From: a virus
Strand: one strand, 5' to 3'
Virus record (IMG/VR): IMGVR_UViG_3300027985_001334
Coordinates: 1-34,027 of that record
Length of the DNA: 34,027 nucleotides
Shown here: in pieces, positions 288 through 32,991 of the stretch
Position numbering within the stretch: position 1 is the first letter of the stretch
Layout: each line of letters opens with the position of its first letter
The notes under the pieces: model-generated
Seen by the model: only the letters and a program-made list of their open reading frames with translations
Databases searched by the model: none
Told to the model about the DNA's origin: nothing
Position numbers and translations under genes: made by a program

Positions 288-1331
288 ATGAATAATTTAC
301 TCATAGTAATTGATGGAGAATCAAGAGTTTCTCATAGAGTTATAGCTGAACAAACACATAATCAACAAAAAAATATAAATGAGTTGATAAGAAAAAATAT
401 TTCTTTTTTAGAAAGATTTGGACACCTTGCGTTTAAAACGGAGAAAACCACAAATACGGACTTAGGGAATGGTAGACCATCTCAAACCTACTACCTAAAT
501 GAAGACCAAGCAACATTTCTTATTACCCTACTTCGTAATAATGAAATAGTCCTAAACTTTAAATTTGCACTTGTAAAAGCTTTTTCTGATTTGAAGAAAA
601 AAGCTCAAGAGCTTGTAGTAAAAGAGAGTTTGATAGAAGATTTTAACTACACTAGAGTAGATTTAAATGATCAAGAAACAAGAGATATCTATTTTAAAGT
701 GTTTAATGGTACTTGTTATTATACTGGAGCTAAACTTAGTCGTGATGAGTTTCACATAGATCATATACATCCTAGATCATTAGGTGGTCAAGATATTGTT
801 ATGAATCTTGTTTTAAGTGATCCAACAGTAAACATACAAAAATCAGATAAATATGATACTGCATTTATACAACATCATCAAAACATAGTTATAAAACACT
901 ACTCAAGTAAAATAGTAGCTATGTTATCTGTAAATCAAAAGTTGGAAGTAAGTGCAAAAGATATCCCAGCTTTATTAAATGCTAAAACCATAGATAAAAT
1001 TGAGAATCTATTCGGGAAAGATGTTACTAGAAAATACTATGCAGATATTTTAGGTTTAGATTGGCAAGAACTTAAAAAAACTATGCTGCCATATGATGAA
1101 CATATAAAAATATTTATTGATAGATATGTAATAAAAGACAATCAATGCATAACTACAAGTGAAAATATTTATACCCATTATGAAGAGTATTGCACTTCAA
1201 ATAATATAAAACCAAAATCTTACAATGCTTTTTTTACTATCTTTGCAAAAGAGCTTGAAATGAAATCTTCACAAAAAAGATTAAATGGTACAAGAACTAG
1301 AGTTTATCAAATCAATTTAAAAGGAGAATAG
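288..1331 (+). CDS. Rha-type antirepressor-like protein fused to an HNH nuclease motif
   Basis: Three parts can be seen in 347 residues. Residues 1-110 resemble the phage Rha regulatory domain (SRVSHRVIAEQ, then FLERFGHLAFKTEK, GRPSQTYYLNEDQA and LRNN). Residues 143-186 carry an HNH-type nuclease motif: C143, H156-I-D-H159, P162, then N173, N182 and K185. Residues 285-345 look like the winged-helix tail common after phage primases and other DNA-binding phage proteins (NIYTHYEEYC...YNAFFTIFAKEL). Rha proteins are known from lambdoid and P22-like phages, where they can act against repressors. Here a DNA-cutting domain sits in the middle. The gene follows a strong promoter opposite the XRE repressor. 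Rha and HNH calls are good; the biological role is inferred. Confidence 0.75.
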   Translation: MNNLLIVIDGESRVSHRVIAEQTHNQQKNINELIRKNISFLERFGHLAFKTEKTTNTDLGNGRPSQTYYLNEDQATFLITLLRNNEIVLNFKFALVKAFSDLKKKAQELVVKESLIEDFNYTRVDLNDQETRDIYFKVFNGTCYYTGAKLSRDEFHIDHIHPRSLGGQDIVMNLVLSDPTVNIQKSDKYDTAFIQHHQNIVIKHYSSKIVAMLSVNQKLEVSAKDIPALLNAKTIDKIENLFGKDVTRKYYADILGLDWQELKKTMLPYDEHIKIFIDRYVIKDNQCITTSENIYTHYEEYCTSNNIKPKSYNAFFTIFAKELEMKSSQKRLNGTRTRVYQINLKGE

Positions 1332-1980: not shown

Positions 1981-2265
1981 TAAAAATTACCCTATTTTTT
2001 AAAAAACCTTTCTAAAGACTATTTCAGGGGTGTGAATAGTTTTTGAAATATTCTAATCAAGCTACGATTTTATGGTACTTTTAGAGTAGGGTGTTTTTTT
2101 AGTAAGTGTGTGTAAATTTACCCCCTTATATGTGTGAATAGACCACTAAGTGTGTGAAGATTTACCCCTTATAATTTTAGTAAGTGTGTATAAATTTACC
2201 CCCTGCAAGTGTGTAAGTTTTTACCCCCATACTTTGGGTAAGTGTGTATAAATTTACCCCTATAT

Positions 2266-2291
2266 AAAAAGCCTAAAAATAGGGCTTTTTT
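2266..2291 (+). terminator. Terminator-like hairpin inside the iteron array
   Basis: AAAAAGCC (2266-2273) pairs with GGCTTTTT (2283-2290) and the right arm ends in a T run. It sits between iterons at 2240 and 2297 and would stop transcription crossing the origin, or form a small cruciform. Confidence 0.55.
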
Positions 2292-2360
2292 ATTTAAAGT
2301 GTGTGTAAATTTACCCCTAAAAAGTTAAATTTATATATCAAGTGTGTGTAAAATGGTCTA

Positions 2361-2394
2361 TAAGTATGAGTTAATAATTAAAATGTCATACTTA
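2361..2394. promoter_or_regulatory. Inverted repeat operator upstream of rep
   Basis: TAAGTATGA (2361-2369) and TCATACTTA (2386-2394) form a 9-bp inverted repeat between the two variant iterons, overlapping a TATAAG -10-like box at 2359-2364. Iteron initiators of this type commonly bind such inverted repeats as dimers to repress their own gene; here that is inferred. Confidence 0.5.
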
Positions 2395-2434
2395 CAAGTG
2401 TGAGTAAAATGGACTACCTAAAATAGGAGCTTTT

Positions 2435-3217
2435 ATGGCAGATAGAAAAAATAATATTAAATATCCAGTTAAAATATCGAATGATTATATTCTTTCAAAA
2501 CATGATTTAAGCGCAGCTAGTCAGCAAATGATTATAGAAGTAGCTGCCAAAATCCAAAAAGATGAATATACAGAAAATCTAGTAAATGATGCAGTTGTAA
2601 AACTATATACTAAAGATTTACAAGATTCTTTTTGTACTGATCATAGAAATTTAAAAAGAATATTAAAAAGATTAAGAGAGGAGAGTGTATCAGTTCCAAC
2701 AGATTGGAATGAACATGGTGAAGTTATAAAATACAGAAATACTGGTTTAATTCTTAGATTTGATTACAAAATTGACGATGGCTGGTTTGAAATACACGTA
2801 GATGAAAAGATAAGACCTCATTTTGTAGAATTTTCAAAATTTCTTTTTACTATAGGAAATAAAAAAGAATATACAAGCCTAAATAGAAAGCACTCTAAAA
2901 GATTATATCTCATGCTGCGTAAAATACAATTTCAAATAGTCTGGAGAGTAATATATAAACTCGAAGAATTAAATAAACTTTTTGACACAAATTATAAAAG
3001 ATTTGGAGAAATAAACAGAGCTATTTTAACTCCTTGCATAGAAGAGATCAACGAAGAAACTGGATTAAAAGTATTTTGTGAAGGTAGAAAAAGTAAAGGT
3101 AGTAAAGCCATAGATGAAATTGTTTTCGATGTAGAGTTTAGCGATGTGCATAAAAACCTAGAAAAACCTTTATCAAAAGAAGATTATATAAAAAAACAAA
3201 TTGAAAAAGATATTTAA
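2435..3217 (+). CDS. rep: Plasmid replication initiator, Rep_3 / RepB family
   Basis: A 260-residue protein with the layout of Rep_3 initiators: an N-terminal winged helix opening with YPVKISNDYILSKHDLSAASQQ, where the segment after the strand matches the family start, then a second winged-helix region (RKHSKRLYLMLRKIQFQI...LEELNKLFDTNYKRFGEINRAILTPCIEEIN) that contacts iterons. Length is usual for the family. The ribosome site TAGGAG precedes ATG 2435. The iteron array lies directly upstream. It melts the origin and recruits host DnaB; monomers replicate and dimers repress. This gene is the main evidence that the phage is maintained as a plasmid. Confidence 0.9.
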   Translation: MADRKNNIKYPVKISNDYILSKHDLSAASQQMIIEVAAKIQKDEYTENLVNDAVVKLYTKDLQDSFCTDHRNLKRILKRLREESVSVPTDWNEHGEVIKYRNTGLILRFDYKIDDGWFEIHVDEKIRPHFVEFSKFLFTIGNKKEYTSLNRKHSKRLYLMLRKIQFQIVWRVIYKLEELNKLFDTNYKRFGEINRAILTPCIEEINEETGLKVFCEGRKSKGSKAIDEIVFDVEFSDVHKNLEKPLSKEDYIKKQIEKDI

Positions 3218-3371: not shown

Positions 3372-6086
3372 CTAATTAAATGCTCTTTCAATAGATTTAT
3401 TAAAATCATCTTTTTTCTTTTTAGAATTTTTATTTTGTTTTTTAAGATTTTTTGCTAATTCTTCCTCTTCGTTGAAGTGTCTTATACCAAATGCTCTTAA
3501 AACTAACTCTTCTACTGTCATATCTTCATCATAGTAATTTTTACGTGGTTCTGCTAATCCTAACTTATTTAAACCTATTTGCCCACCTCTTTGTGCATAT
3601 CTTCCTAAAGTCATAGGTGGAAGATAGTTTTCAGCCATAGCAGCTACTCTAGCTGTATAATCATCAAATTGACTATAACCATCTTGCCCCTCTTTTTTCT
3701 TATATAAACTACGTCCTAATGGAGACTCGCCATTGAATATATTTAAAATAGAACGTGGGAAACCTCCTATTTCAAATTCAAACTTTGTTCCTGGTATCAT
3801 ACGACCAGCATTTAGATACCAGCCATTGCCAAGATTTACCCATTCTGCTACGCCAAAAAGATTTATTTTATCGTTTGCCCAATCTGGAGTTTTTAACTCA
3901 TCTTCGTCATTTTGAAATACACTCGCTTTTAAAGCTGCTATTCCAGTTCCTAATATCATAGCTCTTAAAGGATGCTTCAAAGCTATTTTAGCAACTTCTG
4001 GAGTAGCTTTGAACTGATAATGTAAAAATGGCATAAGACCAAATTTATCTAAAGTTTTTATAGCAGCTGGTAAAGGTGTACTATAATCTACATAAACCTT
4101 TACTGCTTCTTTAAATGCTTCTGCTTCTGGTAAACCAGCATCAAGATTTTTTTTAAATGCAGCTACTTTAAAAATCTTATCTTCCCAATCGTACAAGTTT
4201 CTTACAAAAGCCCCACTTTTTGAATCTTGAGATAGATATAAAGTTTTCCATATAGATTTAGCTATATTTACACCTTTGCTATTTGGTTTAAAATCTATAC
4301 CTTTATCTTCCATATCATCCAAATAACTATTTAAGCCATATTTGTTTGCACGTGATACTAACTCATCAAATTGTTTTTTGTTTTTAACCCTCATGCTTAA
4401 TACATCACTTAAAGCTCTTAAATCTCCATTTAAACCAGCTAACAATAAGTTTGAAGCTATATTATAGATATGAGTAGGGGGATTTTTAACAGTAAGGTTT
4501 ACTTTTAGATGATCAACCATACCAATAAGACCATAAGCAACTTTTGAATACACATCAAGTTCACGTTCTACTACTCTAGCATTATCAAGTTCCATTTTTA
4601 CATCTTTAGGGATATATTTTCCACCTAATGCCCCATATTTTTTTAGACCTGTTTTAGCAGATGCATCTGAAACTCTTACATATCCCTCTTTTGCTTCATC
4701 TATACCATACTTTTCAGCTAAAGTTTTTAAAACTTCTGCTTTTTGTAGTAGTACATTTTGTTCAGCGATTGTATTAGATATTACAAAACTAGCATCTTCT
4801 ATCATACCTAAAGCTACTCTCTCATCGTATGTTAAATCTTTTCTTTTTTTCAACTTTTCAAAAGCAGCAGAGCTACCTCTTGTGACACCCTCATCAACAT
4901 AATCTTTGTAATATCTTTTTATGTAGTGTTCTATTTTGTCTTTTTCACTTAATACTCCAGCATCTACAAGCTTTTGAGCATTTTTATCTATGATTGCTCT
5001 AAAAGTATTGTAAAAAGGTTTTAAATCACTATTTAAATCAGTAGCTGCTAAATCTCCATTTAGAGCCTTTATTAGATTTTTATTATCATCTTGAGATAAT
5101 TTTTCTAAAGCTTTTTTTATAGCTCCAGCTTCATTATAGATTTGAGTTCTCATTATTCTATAACTGTTTACTACTTCATTTGCTGCTTTTTGTTCATCAC
5201 TTAAAGTAAACCATCTTGATTCTTTGACACCTTTTGTAAACTCTCCACCCATAGCCTCAATAATTGCTTTAGGGATATAATCAGATACTTTTTCTAGACC
5301 TTTAAAAAAGCCAGTCCAAACATCATCTACAAATTTATCCCTTTTACTTGGTGCTTTTTTATAGTTTTCAATTCCTTGATTTATAAAACTTTTCATCTTT
5401 TCAGAAGTAGGGAAGGGGATTACCATGCTATTGATTTGTACATCATTTTTTGATATACTATCATCAGAACCTATGGGAGGTGTATCGCCTTTTGGATCGG
5501 TACCTCGTACTCGCCCGTTTGTGTGCGATGAGTTGTCAAAAGCATTGAGTCTTTTGCTCTCATAGGCATCATCTGTAAAATAAGTAATTAACTTATGCTT
5601 TTTATTGTTATGCTTCTCAACGATTACAACATATTTTTTATCATTCATTTCATAAGTATATTTATGCCTACCACTTTTTAAGTCTATATCAGCAATACCT
5701 TTTTTAACAACTTCTCCCAAAGATATTAGATCAATCCAGTCAAGTTTACCACCATTTAAATCACCAGCATCTCCAAAATGTCTTTTTACTATATGAACTG
5801 CACCATAGTTTTCATCTCCTTTATCTAATCTGATATCTCTTACATACTGACCAACTGAATCTAAATCATCTCTTTTTATATCAAAATATTTTTGTTTACC
5901 CGAAAACACTTTTAAAAGTTCTTTGTGATCTCTTGAAAGTCCCTCAAACTGTCTATATAAATAGTCTTGCAGATTTTTAAAATCTGTATCTGATAATTCA
6001 TCAAATGTTTTATCTAAATAAGCAGCTCTATTTTTTTTGAAATCTTCCAAACTACCTTTAAAGTTTATTCTATTTTTACAATCCAT
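3372..6086 (-). CDS. Large internal virion/ejection protein with N-terminal PBECR-like nuclease domain
   Basis: A 904-residue protein, last of the late operon. Residues 90-172 resemble the phage Barnase-EndoU-ColicinE5/D-RelE-like (PBECR) nuclease group: GAVHIVKRHFGD (H98, H103), then LGEVVKKGIADI, YVVIVEKHNNKKHKLITYFTDD. A Gly/Pro/Ser/Asp-rich linker (185-215) separates it from a long helical body. Around residues 525-560 NLTVKNPPTHIYNIASNLLLAG resembles the C-terminal domains that accompany large polyvalent phage proteins. A short hydrophobic stretch lies near residue 705 (MILGTGIAALKASVF) and the C-terminus is very Lys-rich. It starts one base after the preceding gene, so the two are coupled. 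Most likely injected with the DNA, like T7 gp16-class proteins. Nuclease family good; activity not shown. Confidence 0.65.
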   Translation of the reverse strand: MDCKNRINFKGSLEDFKKNRAAYLDKTFDELSDTDFKNLQDYLYRQFEGLSRDHKELLKVFSGKQKYFDIKRDDLDSVGQYVRDIRLDKGDENYGAVHIVKRHFGDAGDLNGGKLDWIDLISLGEVVKKGIADIDLKSGRHKYTYEMNDKKYVVIVEKHNNKKHKLITYFTDDAYESKRLNAFDNSSHTNGRVRGTDPKGDTPPIGSDDSISKNDVQINSMVIPFPTSEKMKSFINQGIENYKKAPSKRDKFVDDVWTGFFKGLEKVSDYIPKAIIEAMGGEFTKGVKESRWFTLSDEQKAANEVVNSYRIMRTQIYNEAGAIKKALEKLSQDDNKNLIKALNGDLAATDLNSDLKPFYNTFRAIIDKNAQKLVDAGVLSEKDKIEHYIKRYYKDYVDEGVTRGSSAAFEKLKKRKDLTYDERVALGMIEDASFVISNTIAEQNVLLQKAEVLKTLAEKYGIDEAKEGYVRVSDASAKTGLKKYGALGGKYIPKDVKMELDNARVVERELDVYSKVAYGLIGMVDHLKVNLTVKNPPTHIYNIASNLLLAGLNGDLRALSDVLSMRVKNKKQFDELVSRANKYGLNSYLDDMEDKGIDFKPNSKGVNIAKSIWKTLYLSQDSKSGAFVRNLYDWEDKIFKVAAFKKNLDAGLPEAEAFKEAVKVYVDYSTPLPAAIKTLDKFGLMPFLHYQFKATPEVAKIALKHPLRAMILGTGIAALKASVFQNDEDELKTPDWANDKINLFGVAEWVNLGNGWYLNAGRMIPGTKFEFEIGGFPRSILNIFNGESPLGRSLYKKKEGQDGYSQFDDYTARVAAMAENYLPPMTLGRYAQRGGQIGLNKLGLAEPRKNYYDEDMTVEELVLRAFGIRHFNEEEELAKNLKKQNKNSKKKKDDFNKSIERAFN

Positions 6087-6087
6087 A

Positions 6088-8397
6088 TTAACACCCCTCT
6101 ATTAGCATTTTTGTTACATTATTAAAATCTGTTTCTATCTCTTTTGGTTTAGTAGTTAGATTCTCCACAGCTTCAACAGCTCTTATTAAATCAAGTTTTC
6201 TTTTTTCTTCTGGAAGATATCTAGTTAAAGTATCATCATCAAACTTAGTAGATATCTCTTTAATTTTATTTACTTGAATTTCATCTTGTAAAAACTCTTT
6301 TATACCTGGTACTAATTCAACATAATTATTTATTTTTGTTACTAAATCATCTACAACAAAATCTTTAGGCTTCTGCCTAAATTTGTAAGTATTAAAATCA
6401 TTTTTATTTATTTTTGTTAGTTTATTTTGATATCTAATATCTTCATCTTTAAAATCTTGTATAAGTTTTTGTTGAATTTGATTTTTAATTTGATTGTTTT
6501 GTTCATTTAGATTAGTTGTTAGCTTTTCAGAGATATAAGAATCTAAGATATTGATATCTTTATTTACAACAGTATCTATAATAGCTTTTTGTAAATCTGG
6601 CTGAATATTTGCATTATCTAGTTTTATTTTTAGATCGTTGATATCTGGATTTTCTAAATTTTCTAAAGTGTTTTTGGCAAGTTCTCGAAGCCTTAAACCA
6701 CTATATCTATTTTCTATAGGCTGACCATCATTTAAAGTTTTAGATATCTTACTTTCTAAAACCGTTGGTAAAAATCTTTTATTTATAACTTCTTTTATTT
6801 GTCCTGGTGTTGCACCTTCATTTATTAGATCTGTTTCTATTTTTAAAGATGATTCTATAGCCTTATTAGATTCTAGCTCTACTTTGGCCATATCGTTTAT
6901 TTTTTTTGCATTTATTGCATCTACAATATGTTGTCCTAGATTCTCACTCCATCCCTCAAAATTTGAATATATAACACCCTTATTTGATAATTGAAGGATC
7001 TTATTTTTATACTCAATTTGTGCAGCTGCTTTAGGATCTATTATTTCAGTATCTACTAGCTCTCTTAATGTTGCTGGTAAATTTTTATTCACCAGGATAA
7101 AATCTGGTTTATAATCTTCTTCCAGGATCTTACCTTTTTTATAAGCATCTTCTACTTTTCTAACTCTATTATTTATCTCTATGATATCTTCATCTTTTAC
7201 CTCTGGTAAAGAATCAATAGTATCTTTCATTCTTTTTTTAATCTCTTGAGGTGATAAAATCTTTTGAAGTTCATCTAAAGGATTTGGATCTTTTTTATTA
7301 TTTGGATCTAAAGCATTTTGATAAGCTTCATACTCTTTTAGATCATCTACTTTCCTTTGTACAGCTTTAGGCAGTTCTTTATAAATTGTTTCATCATCTA
7401 AAGCTGCAATAGCTTTATTTTTAATTTCGATATCTTCATCTTTTAAAATATCTTTTGCAACACTCATTATTGAAGTAGGGCGCTGTTTTGGTGTTTGGTT
7501 TTGTGTATTTGCGATATCTTCTGCTTGAGTATTTTTAAGCTCATTTAAAAGAGGATTATCTAACATTTCATCATGAATAGAAGCATTATTATTATCTAAG
7601 TTTTCGGCAGCGCTTTTATCTTTTAATGCAGCTGCTTTTTTATCTTTAAAAGCAACACCACCAACAGAACCAAAAGCAGCACCAGCTACAGCACCACCAG
7701 CTGCACTCTGTAAAGCTATCTTTTGTGCTTCCTCTTCACTTTGATTACCACCTCTAGCTACTGCATACTCATAACCAGAGTTTACTACTGCATTTTCAGC
7801 AGCACCAACACCAGCACCTACAGCTGCTTTACCTAAAATTGTTTTAGCAGTTCTAGCAGCTATTCCACCAGCTCCAAAAGAGATAGCATTTAAAGGATCT
7901 ACTAAAGTTTCTACAACTCCTTGAGTAGTCCACTCTTCTGGATGCGTAGCAAGATCTACAACTTGATTAACTCCAGCTTTAATATTTTCTACTGTACCTT
8001 TTGCATTTTGTGACTGATCTTGAAGAGTAGATATCTCTGCTAATCTTTCTTTGCTAAGTCCTTTTTGAGAAACACGATCTTTAGCAGCTGCTATTTTTTC
8101 TTGTGATTTATTTATGTAGTCTGTAGTTTCATCTGATACCAGGTCAAAGCCTATAGATTCAGCGCCAAAATCTAAAGCTTTTGTAAGTCTCATTCCAGTA
8201 TCTGCTAAACCTCTTACTGTTTGAGTATATAAATTATCATTATCTAGTAGATAGTTTCCAGTTTTTGTAGGTTCTGGTATATTTAACTGTTTACGTCTTT
8301 CTTTTTGTGCAAGTTCTACAAGTTCATCATCCGAAGCACCAGCAGCTATTAAACCCTCAAATCTATCTTTACCTAGAATTTCAGATATCTTAGGCAT
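6088..8397 (-). CDS. Large internal virion/ejection-type protein
   Basis: A 769-residue, mostly helical and charged protein with a Gly/Ala-rich, membrane-prone stretch at about residues 172-255 (FGAGGIAARTAKTILGKAAVGAG, then SAAGGAVAGAAFGSVGGVAF). Such glycine-zipper segments are common in proteins that enter the host envelope during DNA ejection. The ribosome site AAGGAG precedes ATG 8397. Its position before the 904-residue nuclease-bearing protein, after two smaller candidates, matches the gp14-gp15-gp16 order of short-tailed phages. No enzymatic motif seen. Role inferred from size, composition and position. Confidence 0.55.
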   Translation of the reverse strand: MPKISEILGKDRFEGLIAAGASDDELVELAQKERRKQLNIPEPTKTGNYLLDNDNLYTQTVRGLADTGMRLTKALDFGAESIGFDLVSDETTDYINKSQEKIAAAKDRVSQKGLSKERLAEISTLQDQSQNAKGTVENIKAGVNQVVDLATHPEEWTTQGVVETLVDPLNAISFGAGGIAARTAKTILGKAAVGAGVGAAENAVVNSGYEYAVARGGNQSEEEAQKIALQSAAGGAVAGAAFGSVGGVAFKDKKAAALKDKSAAENLDNNNASIHDEMLDNPLLNELKNTQAEDIANTQNQTPKQRPTSIMSVAKDILKDEDIEIKNKAIAALDDETIYKELPKAVQRKVDDLKEYEAYQNALDPNNKKDPNPLDELQKILSPQEIKKRMKDTIDSLPEVKDEDIIEINNRVRKVEDAYKKGKILEEDYKPDFILVNKNLPATLRELVDTEIIDPKAAAQIEYKNKILQLSNKGVIYSNFEGWSENLGQHIVDAINAKKINDMAKVELESNKAIESSLKIETDLINEGATPGQIKEVINKRFLPTVLESKISKTLNDGQPIENRYSGLRLRELAKNTLENLENPDINDLKIKLDNANIQPDLQKAIIDTVVNKDINILDSYISEKLTTNLNEQNNQIKNQIQQKLIQDFKDEDIRYQNKLTKINKNDFNTYKFRQKPKDFVVDDLVTKINNYVELVPGIKEFLQDEIQVNKIKEISTKFDDDTLTRYLPEEKRKLDLIRAVEAVENLTTKPKEIETDFNNVTKMLIEGC

Positions 8398-32349: not shown

Positions 32350-32991
32350 TTATCCTTTTATATCTTCTATTATTTCATTTACCAACTTATTAAATATAAT
32401 AGCTGGTGTTCCTGATGTAAGTTCAGTTATGCTCTTACCTTCACTTAGCATCAATTTATATTTACTGTTTGAAGGAATTACAGTTTGATAGATATCAAAG
32501 TGATTGCTATCTTTATCTGTCCAGGCTTTTATATTTGCATAAGTGATTTTATCTGCATGGTGAACACGATTTATAAGAACTTTACATTTTATACCTGGTT
32601 GTTTTTCTACTATCTTATTTATGATCTTATTAAAATCTACTAATCCATCCAATTCATAAGATGAATCACATAAAGGAGTAATAACTAGATCAGTTAATAA
32701 TAATGCAGTTCTAGCTAAAGATGAATCATAACCACCTAAATCTATAATAGTAAGATCATCATCATTTTGTAAATGTGATATCAATTCTTTATCATTTTTG
32801 ATATCTTTCATTTTATAAGGTTGATCTCTTCTATTATTAAATTTTGTAGTGTGTTTTTGTGGATCTAAATCTAAAACAGTAACATTAAACAATTTGCTTA
32901 GTTCTACTGCTAAATTACAAACAGTAGTGGTTTTTGCTACTCCACCTTTTTGGTGAGCTACGGATATAACTTTTAGTTTTGGTTTTAACAT
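32350..32991 (-). CDS. parA: ParA-type partition ATPase
   Basis: 213 residues. Deviant Walker A KGGVAKTT (residues 15-22, HQKGGVAKTTTVCNLAVEL), Walker A' LDLDPQ near 41-46 and Walker B LTIIDLGG near 80-87. The short size, without an N-terminal DNA-binding domain, places it in type Ib ParA; these move plasmids over the nucleoid with a small DNA-binding partner, which follows here. Ribosome site AAGGAG. The upstream region holds the AAACATACGTTT-type palindromes, which could be operator or centromere. Confidence 0.9.
   Translation of the reverse strand: MLKPKLKVISVAHQKGGVAKTTTVCNLAVELSKLFNVTVLDLDPQKHTTKFNNRRDQPYKMKDIKNDKELISHLQNDDDLTIIDLGGYDSSLARTALLLTDLVITPLCDSSYELDGLVDFNKIINKIVEKQPGIKCKVLINRVHHADKITYANIKAWTDKDSNHFDIYQTVIPSNSKYKLMLSEGKSITELTSGTPAIIFNKLVNEIIEDIKG

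What the first reader, a model, noticed from the sequence alone, without database searches (positions are those of the whole stretch)
3372..6086. Injected-type protein with an N-terminal PBECR-like nuclease
Residues 90-172 carry GAVHIVKRHFGD and a YVVIVEKHNNKKHKLITYF strand pair typical of barnase/EndoU/ColE5-like toxins, then a linker and a large ejection-type body. If ejected with DNA, the phage delivers an RNase or tRNase into each new host at infection, which could shut down host translation or kill competing phages. No immunity gene is obvious beside it.
Basis: partly seen in the sequence, partly recalled or inferred. Interest (0 to 1): 0.7.

Follow-up and report, generated by a model that had tools for sequence, protein, structure and literature searches.

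The report
Phage-injected RNase tethered by terminal cysteines
A bacterial virus encodes a protein, probably injected into the host with its DNA, that starts with a toxin-like RNA-cutting domain, and this protein and its partner each keep only one cysteine, at the ends where they would join, so they may be delivered as one disulfide-linked chain that comes apart inside the cell.

Summary
The ORF is real: 904 aa, minus strand, the last gene of an SU10-like podovirus late block. Residues about 85-173 are a divergent PBECR-clade RNase domain. No Pfam model reaches its cut-off, but profile-profile comparison with 30 PBECR1 domains gives P=6e-8 (reversed control 0.63; best of 60 column shuffles 0.008). 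The equivalents of the catalytic His and the strand-4 Ser/Thr are H103 and T168; H98 is not conserved. Structure prediction was inconclusive. The rest of the protein matches the C-terminal part of single-chain phage polyvalent proteins, and the coupled upstream gene their N-terminal part, so injection is likely but inferred.

The surprise is cysteine. In 16 split pairs (11 clusters at 55% identity) the upstream protein has exactly one Cys (16 in 23,801 aa), always in its last three residues, and the downstream protein has a Cys at residues 3-8. Eight of nine single-chain homologues have no Cys. The pattern survives swapped gene order, an 18-kb separation and different contigs, so it is not a DNA-level artefact. 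Best reading: a C-to-N terminal disulfide joins the two chains for delivery and is reduced in the cytosol (inference). The nuclease alone is a new member of a known kind; the cysteine-joined split appears undescribed.

The parts
3372..6086 (-). gene D: 904-aa C-terminal half of a split polyvalent ejection protein (P0001)
   Evidence: ORF and translation; homologues at 40-48% identity
5568..5918 (-). PBECR-clade RNase-like module, residues 57-173 (core 85-173)
5778..5780 (-). His103 codon, equivalent of the invariant PBECR histidine
   Evidence: alignments
5574..5585 (-). Thr168 to Thr171, end of predicted strand 4; T168 aligns with the conserved T/S of PBECR1 (WIITaY), T171 with the S of FYSDR in close relatives
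   Evidence: strand at domain residues 108-115 in model
6078..6080 (-). Cys3, the only cysteine of protein D
6091..6093 (-). Cys769, last residue and only cysteine of protein U
6088..8397 (-). gene U: 769-aa partner, related to T7-gp16-type internal virion protein (residues 159-358 match phrog_342, E=9e-10)
   Evidence: 40% identical to the N-terminus of fused protein L189
3375..5429 (-). body of D (residues 220-904), conserved polyvalent/ejection C-terminal region
   Evidence: alignment A7; occurs at the C-terminus of fused polyvalent proteins
6084..6099 (-). junction: GAGGGGTGTTAATATG, ribosome-binding-like sequence in the last codons of U, one nt between the U stop and the D start

Best explanation
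Gene 3372-6086 (D) is the C-terminal half of a polyvalent ejection protein that this phage family makes as two chains. D carries a PBECR-clade RNase domain behind its N-terminus, and gene 6088-8397 (U) carries the gp16-like N-terminal part. Each chain has a single cysteine: the last residue of U and residue 3 of D. I propose that these two cysteines form a disulfide, so that U and D are packaged and threaded through the tail as one head-to-tail chain. The reducing host cytosol then opens the bond and frees the RNase-bearing chain. This would replace the covalent fusion, and in some relatives the metallopeptidase, of single-chain homologues. Shown by sequence: the domain homology, the conserved His and Thr, the split/fused relation, and the cysteine pattern. 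Inferred: virion location, injection, disulfide formation, reduction, RNase activity and its target (host or phage mRNA, or anti-phage RNA, rather than wholesale tRNA). My confidence by step: PBECR relationship 0.9; virion-delivered 0.8; active RNase 0.6; U-D disulfide 0.55.
For: Domain: PBECR1 profile link P=6e-8 with controls. The family profile and Pfam PBECR1 find the same places in five genome stretches, e.g. G340:C1:267.9 kb. The best PDB match of the family profile is 7m5f_C, a CDI toxin of BECR RNase fold, E=2.1e-5. Delivery: late virion block with SU10-like portal and capsid; tight coupling to a gp16-like gene; the D body is fused in one chain to U-type N-termini in L189 (E=7e-24 and 1e-51), L135, L133 and L191. 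Relatives of U carry ART-PolyVal, LPD23, SNF2 helicase and PBECR1/2. Cysteines: 16 pairs, U total 23,801 aa with 16 Cys, all within the last three residues; every D has a Cys at residue 3-8. Of 249 distinct ORFs of at least 300 aa, 13 end in Cys and all 13 end in their sole Cys; they are U proteins. Partners first found by homology fit as well: G104, sole Cys at 842 of 844; G299, last residue; C. gastrosuis, last residue. Order swapped in G214 and still present. Eight of nine single-chain homologues have no Cys.
Against: No Pfam model reaches its cut-off for the window domain. The AlphaFold model is weak (mean pLDDT 65), does not place H103 in a helix, and finds no BECR structure. D lacks the Arg of the FYSDR motif. 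Nothing shows the proteins in a virion. A disulfide must form after the reducing producer cytoplasm, in the particle or on release. Homodimers, metal binding, or linkage to a third virion protein would also use single cysteines. Four D proteins have a second Cys near the C-terminus (L176, L187, G104, G299; L187 is a broken copy), one fused protein (L190) has two internal Cys, and G104 has a third, PBECR1-bearing protein with two C-terminal Cys.
Confidence: 0.55

Rival explanations
1. Ordinary polyvalent ejection protein with a PBECR RNase; the terminal cysteines serve separate local purposes (homodimerisation, metal site, attachment to the portal or core) and do not join U to D.
For: All domain and context evidence is equally explained; some D proteins have an extra C-terminal Cys.
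Against: The cysteines are found exactly at the two ends that are continuous in fused homologues, occur together in all 16 pairs, and are absent from 8 of 9 fused proteins.
Confidence: 0.3
2. The Cys codons reflect translation signals at the gene junction (ribosome-binding sequence, stop-start overlap, or ribosome hopping from TGY to TGY that makes a fusion protein).
For: The window and L003 share GAGGGGTGTTAA at the junction; the gap between the two Cys codons is only 8-24 nt in 11 of the 12 adjacent pairs.
Against: TGT/TGC differ in 8 of 12 pairs; the gap is 263 nt in L181; gene order is swapped in G214; genes lie 18 kb apart in G104 and on separate contigs in G299.
Confidence: 0.04
3. The N-terminal domain is a degenerate PBECR used only as a structural spacer, without RNase activity.
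For: The conserved Arg after the terminal Ser (FYSDR) is Asp in the window; some Helicobacter-type relatives have lost the catalytic His (KQ in L116 and L124).
Against: H103, T168, T171, Tyr143 and the glycines are kept at only 35-40% overall identity to the nearest relative; PBECR domains recur in different positions and types across the junction.
Confidence: 0.2
4. The domain is not a nuclease but an unrelated alpha+beta fold (for example NTF2-like), with chance similarity to PBECR.
For: VIA-align lists NTF2/CaMKII-hub chains first, Z about 6.
Against: Those Z values are at background level for a model with pLDDT 65; profile evidence with reversed and shuffled controls, and shared loci between models, link it to PBECR1.
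Confidence: 0.05

Closest known systems
PBECR1 (PF18809), phage-Barnase-EndoU-ColicinE5/D-RelE-like nuclease 1 (Iyer et al. 2017, PMC5512222)
   Same: Profile homology over the whole domain, conserved His in the G..HI..(K/R)H motif, T/S in the last strand, location in phage polyvalent proteins of Campylobacterales.
   Different: Below Pfam's cut-off (16.5 of 27.6 bits); own motif set (GxIxxxELxxIGxVIRNG, FYSDR) shared with DUF3519-type relatives.
Phage polyvalent proteins (Iyer et al. 2017)
   Same: Several disparate domains (PBECR, ART-PolyVal, LPD23, SNF2 helicase, metallopeptidase) in virion-context proteins with shuffling between neighbours.
   Different: Split into two chains, no metallopeptidase in the window pair, and a conserved pair of terminal cysteines at the break.
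T7 gp16 / phrog_342 internal virion protein
   Same: The U protein matches a segment of the family (E=9e-10); same place in the late block.
   Different: T7 gp16 is one 1318-aa chain without Cys; no detectable homology of the D body with it.
CdiA-CT of Serratia marcescens BWH57 (PDB 7m5f), a BECR-fold CDI toxin
   Same: Family profile E=2.1e-5, aligned over the G..HI..H motif and strands; BECR fold by its authors (PMC8616854).
   Different: Delivered by contact-dependent inhibition with an immunity protein; none is seen here.
jhp1044-type polyvalent proteins of Helicobacter prophages
   Same: L013 carries a non-syntenic copy of this domain, with PBECR2, PBECR3 and ddrB-ParB.
   Different: Domain in the middle of another protein, no D body.

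Membership tests
PBECR1 (PF18809) | Score over Pfam's gathering cut-off | tested here: not met
   16.5 bits against 27.6
PBECR clade (wider) | Statistically supported profile homology to PBECR | tested here: met
   hhalign P=6.1e-8, Prob 94.7, 94 columns; controls 0.63 and 0.0083; DUF3519 over cut-off in relative L013, PF12033 and PF18809 hits overlap in genomes
PBECR clade (wider) | Conserved histidine, in an N-terminal helix | tested here: inconclusive
   H103 is conserved (23 of 23) and aligns with the PBECR1 His, but the model region has low confidence and is not a helix
PBECR clade (wider) | Ser/Thr in strand 4 | tested here: met
   T168 and T171 lie in predicted strand 164-171; T168 aligns with T/S of PBECR1
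BECR fold | Helix plus 4-5 stranded sheet matching known BECR structures | tested here: inconclusive
   Helix 117-129 and four strands are predicted, mostly at pLDDT 66-85, but Foldseek and VIA-align list no BECR match; model pLDDT 65
Metal-independent endoRNase | RNA cleavage | not testable with these tools
   needs a purified protein assay
Phage polyvalent protein | Two or more functionally disparate domains in one polypeptide | tested here: met
   PBECR-type domain plus ejection body in D; relatives with ART, LPD23, SNF2, PBECR1-3, metallopeptidase
Phage polyvalent protein | Encoded among virion genes | tested here: met
   behind gp16-like gene in a block with SU10-like MCP and portal
Phage polyvalent protein | Present in virion and injected | not testable with these tools
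   no proteomics
Toxin-immunity system (CDI type) | Adjacent immunity gene | tested here: not met
   next gene is U with 1 nt spacing; the other side is a convergent Rep gene; only antisense ORFs overlap
Phage-plasmid | Plasmid replication and partition genes plus virion genes on one element | tested here: met
   Rep3 initiator over cut-off with five 21-bp iterons, ParA-like ATPase, terminase, portal and capsid; circularity not shown

The most novel reading that the evidence does not exclude
Split polyvalent ejection proteins are spliced by a single C-terminal-to-N-terminal disulfide into one linear chain that can thread through the phage tail, and the reducing cytosol acts as the release switch. 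This would be a protease-free way to deliver several effectors, here an RNase, as one train and separate them after entry.
Probability: 0.5. Interest if true: 0.85.

Novelty: new variant of a known kind. Interest (0 to 1): 0.62.

Why it matters
How phages deliver several large proteins through a narrow tail, and how those proteins separate afterwards, is open; Iyer et al. proposed metallopeptidase domains as the answer. A conserved, otherwise unique cysteine pair at the break between two ejection proteins makes a specific alternative testable with one non-reducing gel. It also gives a simple sequence signature for other hidden split effectors, and a candidate RNase that a phage may carry into the host at the start of infection.

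Tried and rejected
Whole-protein Pfam, PHROG and PDB searches gave nothing useful for D, because the domain is divergent. My first PBECR1 alignment had half its rows on the wrong strand: its hhalign numbers are void and are replaced. A single-sequence AlphaFold run was poor, and the run with 15 sequences was moderate. Foldseek and VIA-align listed no BECR chain; the top rows (tyrosine phosphatases, NTF2-like) are at background. The second PDB hit family, secretagogin, is an EF-hand mimic of the GxITxxEL stretch. I looked for antitoxin partners beside solo copies of the domain in chromosomes and T4SS clusters; no recurrent partner was seen. D body against T7 gp14/15/16: no homology. Ribosome hopping or ribosome-binding constraint as the cause of the Cys codons: rejected by mismatched codons and non-adjacent pairs. 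P0001 and the portal have no match in the plasmid collection. Literature searches on ejection proteins, polyvalent proteins and disulfides found no description of such a pair; the library lacks most subscription papers.

Full report
OBSERVATION. The ORF at 3372-6086 exists but lies on the minus strand. It codes for 904 aa with a clean start: the upstream gene's last codons read GAGGGGTGT TAA T ATG.

THE DOMAIN. A whole-protein Pfam scan gives no relevant hit. The excised region 57-187 gives PBECR1 at 16.5 bits, below the 27.6 cut-off. Three relatives of the region match PBECR3 or DUF3519, one of them (L013, a Helicobacter cetorum prophage) over the DUF3519 cut-off. DUF3519 and PBECR1 matches overlap in the same places in genomes. 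A four-sequence profile of the region finds 68 of 397 genomes of the phylum, and weakly re-finds places that PF18809 finds strongly (for example G340:C1:267.9 kb and 1765.7 kb, G341:C27:80.2 kb, G207:C69, G170:C10:122 kb). With 30 family members against 30 correctly oriented PBECR1 domains, hhalign gives probability 94.7 and P=6.1e-8 over 94 columns. The reversed PBECR1 alignment gives 0.63 and the best of 60 column shuffles 0.0083. The window sequence itself is the best scorer of the PBECR1 HMM among its family. The family profile's best PDB match is 7m5f_C (E=2.1e-5), a CDI toxin whose authors assign it the BECR RNase fold (PMC8616854). The next PDB hits (secretagogin, 4e-4) are EF-hand mimics, so this line is supportive, not decisive.

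ACTIVE SITE. Iyer et al. 2017 (PMC5512222) define PBECR by a His in the first helix and a Ser/Thr in strand 4. H103 is conserved in the 23-member alignment and aligns with the PBECR1 His. H98 is H or K, just as the equivalent PBECR1 position varies. T168 aligns with the conserved T/S of PBECR1, and T171 with the Ser of FYSDR in close relatives. The window copy lacks the Arg of FYSDR. The AlphaFold model (pLDDT 65) shows a helix and four strands with the two Thr in the last strand, but the H103 region is unreliable and no BECR chain was listed: inconclusive.

CONTEXT. The contig carries an SU10-like major capsid protein and portal, terminase and tail proteins. Gene D is the last of the block and follows, by one nucleotide, gene U (6088-8397), which matches the T7-gp16 family phrog_342 (E=9e-10). 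D's body (residues 220-904) is 40-48% identical in relatives. More distant copies of the body lie at the C-terminus of single-chain polyvalent proteins of 1,026-2,555 aa with metallopeptidase, LPD23, PBECR and gp16-like segments. In L189 one 1,746-aa chain has the window's U N-terminus (40% identity, E=7e-24) and the D body (E=1e-51). U and D are thus two halves of one ancestral delivery protein. Delivery into the host is inferred from this, not shown.

SHUFFLING. The PBECR module sits at the start of D in the window and L003, near the end of U in L137 and L186, elsewhere in U in L178 and L180. It is replaced by PBECR3 at the start of D in L176 and is absent from D in L136.

CYSTEINES. U of the window has one Cys, its last residue; D has one, residue 3. 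In 12 adjacent pairs the U proteins (17,026 aa) have 12 Cys, 11 as the last residue and one third from last; every D has its first Cys at residue 3-6. A scan of all fetched ORFs of at least 300 aa found 13 of 249 that end in Cys, each with that Cys as its only one. Twelve were of this set or copies of it, and the extra one is the missing partner of the lone D of G214, a U protein 41% identical to that of L176, encoded after D instead of before it. Partners of D in G104 and G299 were then sought by homology only: both have a sole Cys, 3rd from last and last. A new Campylobacter gastrosuis pair fits too. In all there are 16 pairs in 11 clusters at 55% identity: U 23,801 aa with 16 Cys, all in the last three residues; D 12,346 aa with 20 Cys, 16 of them at residues 3-8. 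If the sole Cys fell at random, nine lineages alone would give about 10^-24 (a rough figure that ignores relatedness). The window's genes have 0.6% Cys overall. Eight of nine single-chain homologues (L133, L134, L135, L189, L191, L193, L194, L014) have none; L190 has two internal ones. The C-terminal sequences of U before the Cys are of several unrelated kinds. Codon mismatch (TGT/TGC in 8 of 12), a 263-nt gap, swapped order and unlinked genes rule out a nucleotide-level cause.

MECHANISM. The simplest account is a disulfide between the C-terminus of U and the N-terminus of D that restores the covalent continuity of the fused form, allows threading through the tail as one chain, and opens in the reducing cytosol. 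There D's RNase domain would act on RNA. Which RNA is unknown; wholesale tRNA cleavage is unlikely for a phage that must be translated, and Iyer et al. suggest mRNA or CRISPR RNA.

NOVELTY. The nuclease-bearing ejection protein is a new member of a published class. The cysteine-joined split was not found in the papers searched and is a new variant if confirmed.

Noticed in passing
window 2104-2416, 2435-3217 and 32350-32991: Rep3 plasmid initiator with five 21-bp direct repeats (iterons) upstream and a ParA-like ATPase on the phage contig: the element is probably a podoviral phage-plasmid. No terminal repeat shows circularity.
   Followed up: partly
L209:1138-5063 and L184: In G104 the polyvalent protein looks split in three: a U with its sole Cys 3rd from the end, a 416-aa PBECR1 protein with both its Cys near the C-terminus (407, 414), and a D 18 kb away starting MIC.
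   Followed up: partly
L143:7022-8913: Three tandem solo copies of the PBECR-like domain (192-237 aa) lie between genes that look like T4SS/conjugation components.
   Followed up: no
L140, L141, L142, L146: Solo ~150-aa chromosomal genes with the same domain and a short helical N-terminus, in the window's own genus, family and order, without a recurrent neighbour.
   Followed up: partly
L116 and L124 (IMG/VR prophage contigs): Some copies of the domain have KQ in place of the catalytic (K/R)H, suggesting inactivated versions.
   Followed up: no
window 288-1331: Rha-type phage regulatory domain fused to an HNH endonuclease domain; a similar gene lies near D in L003.
   Followed up: no
L202 (phage T7): T7 gp15 and gp16 have no Cys, and gp14 has exactly one, at residue 2; whether terminal cysteines matter in other ejectosomes was not examined.
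   Followed up: no
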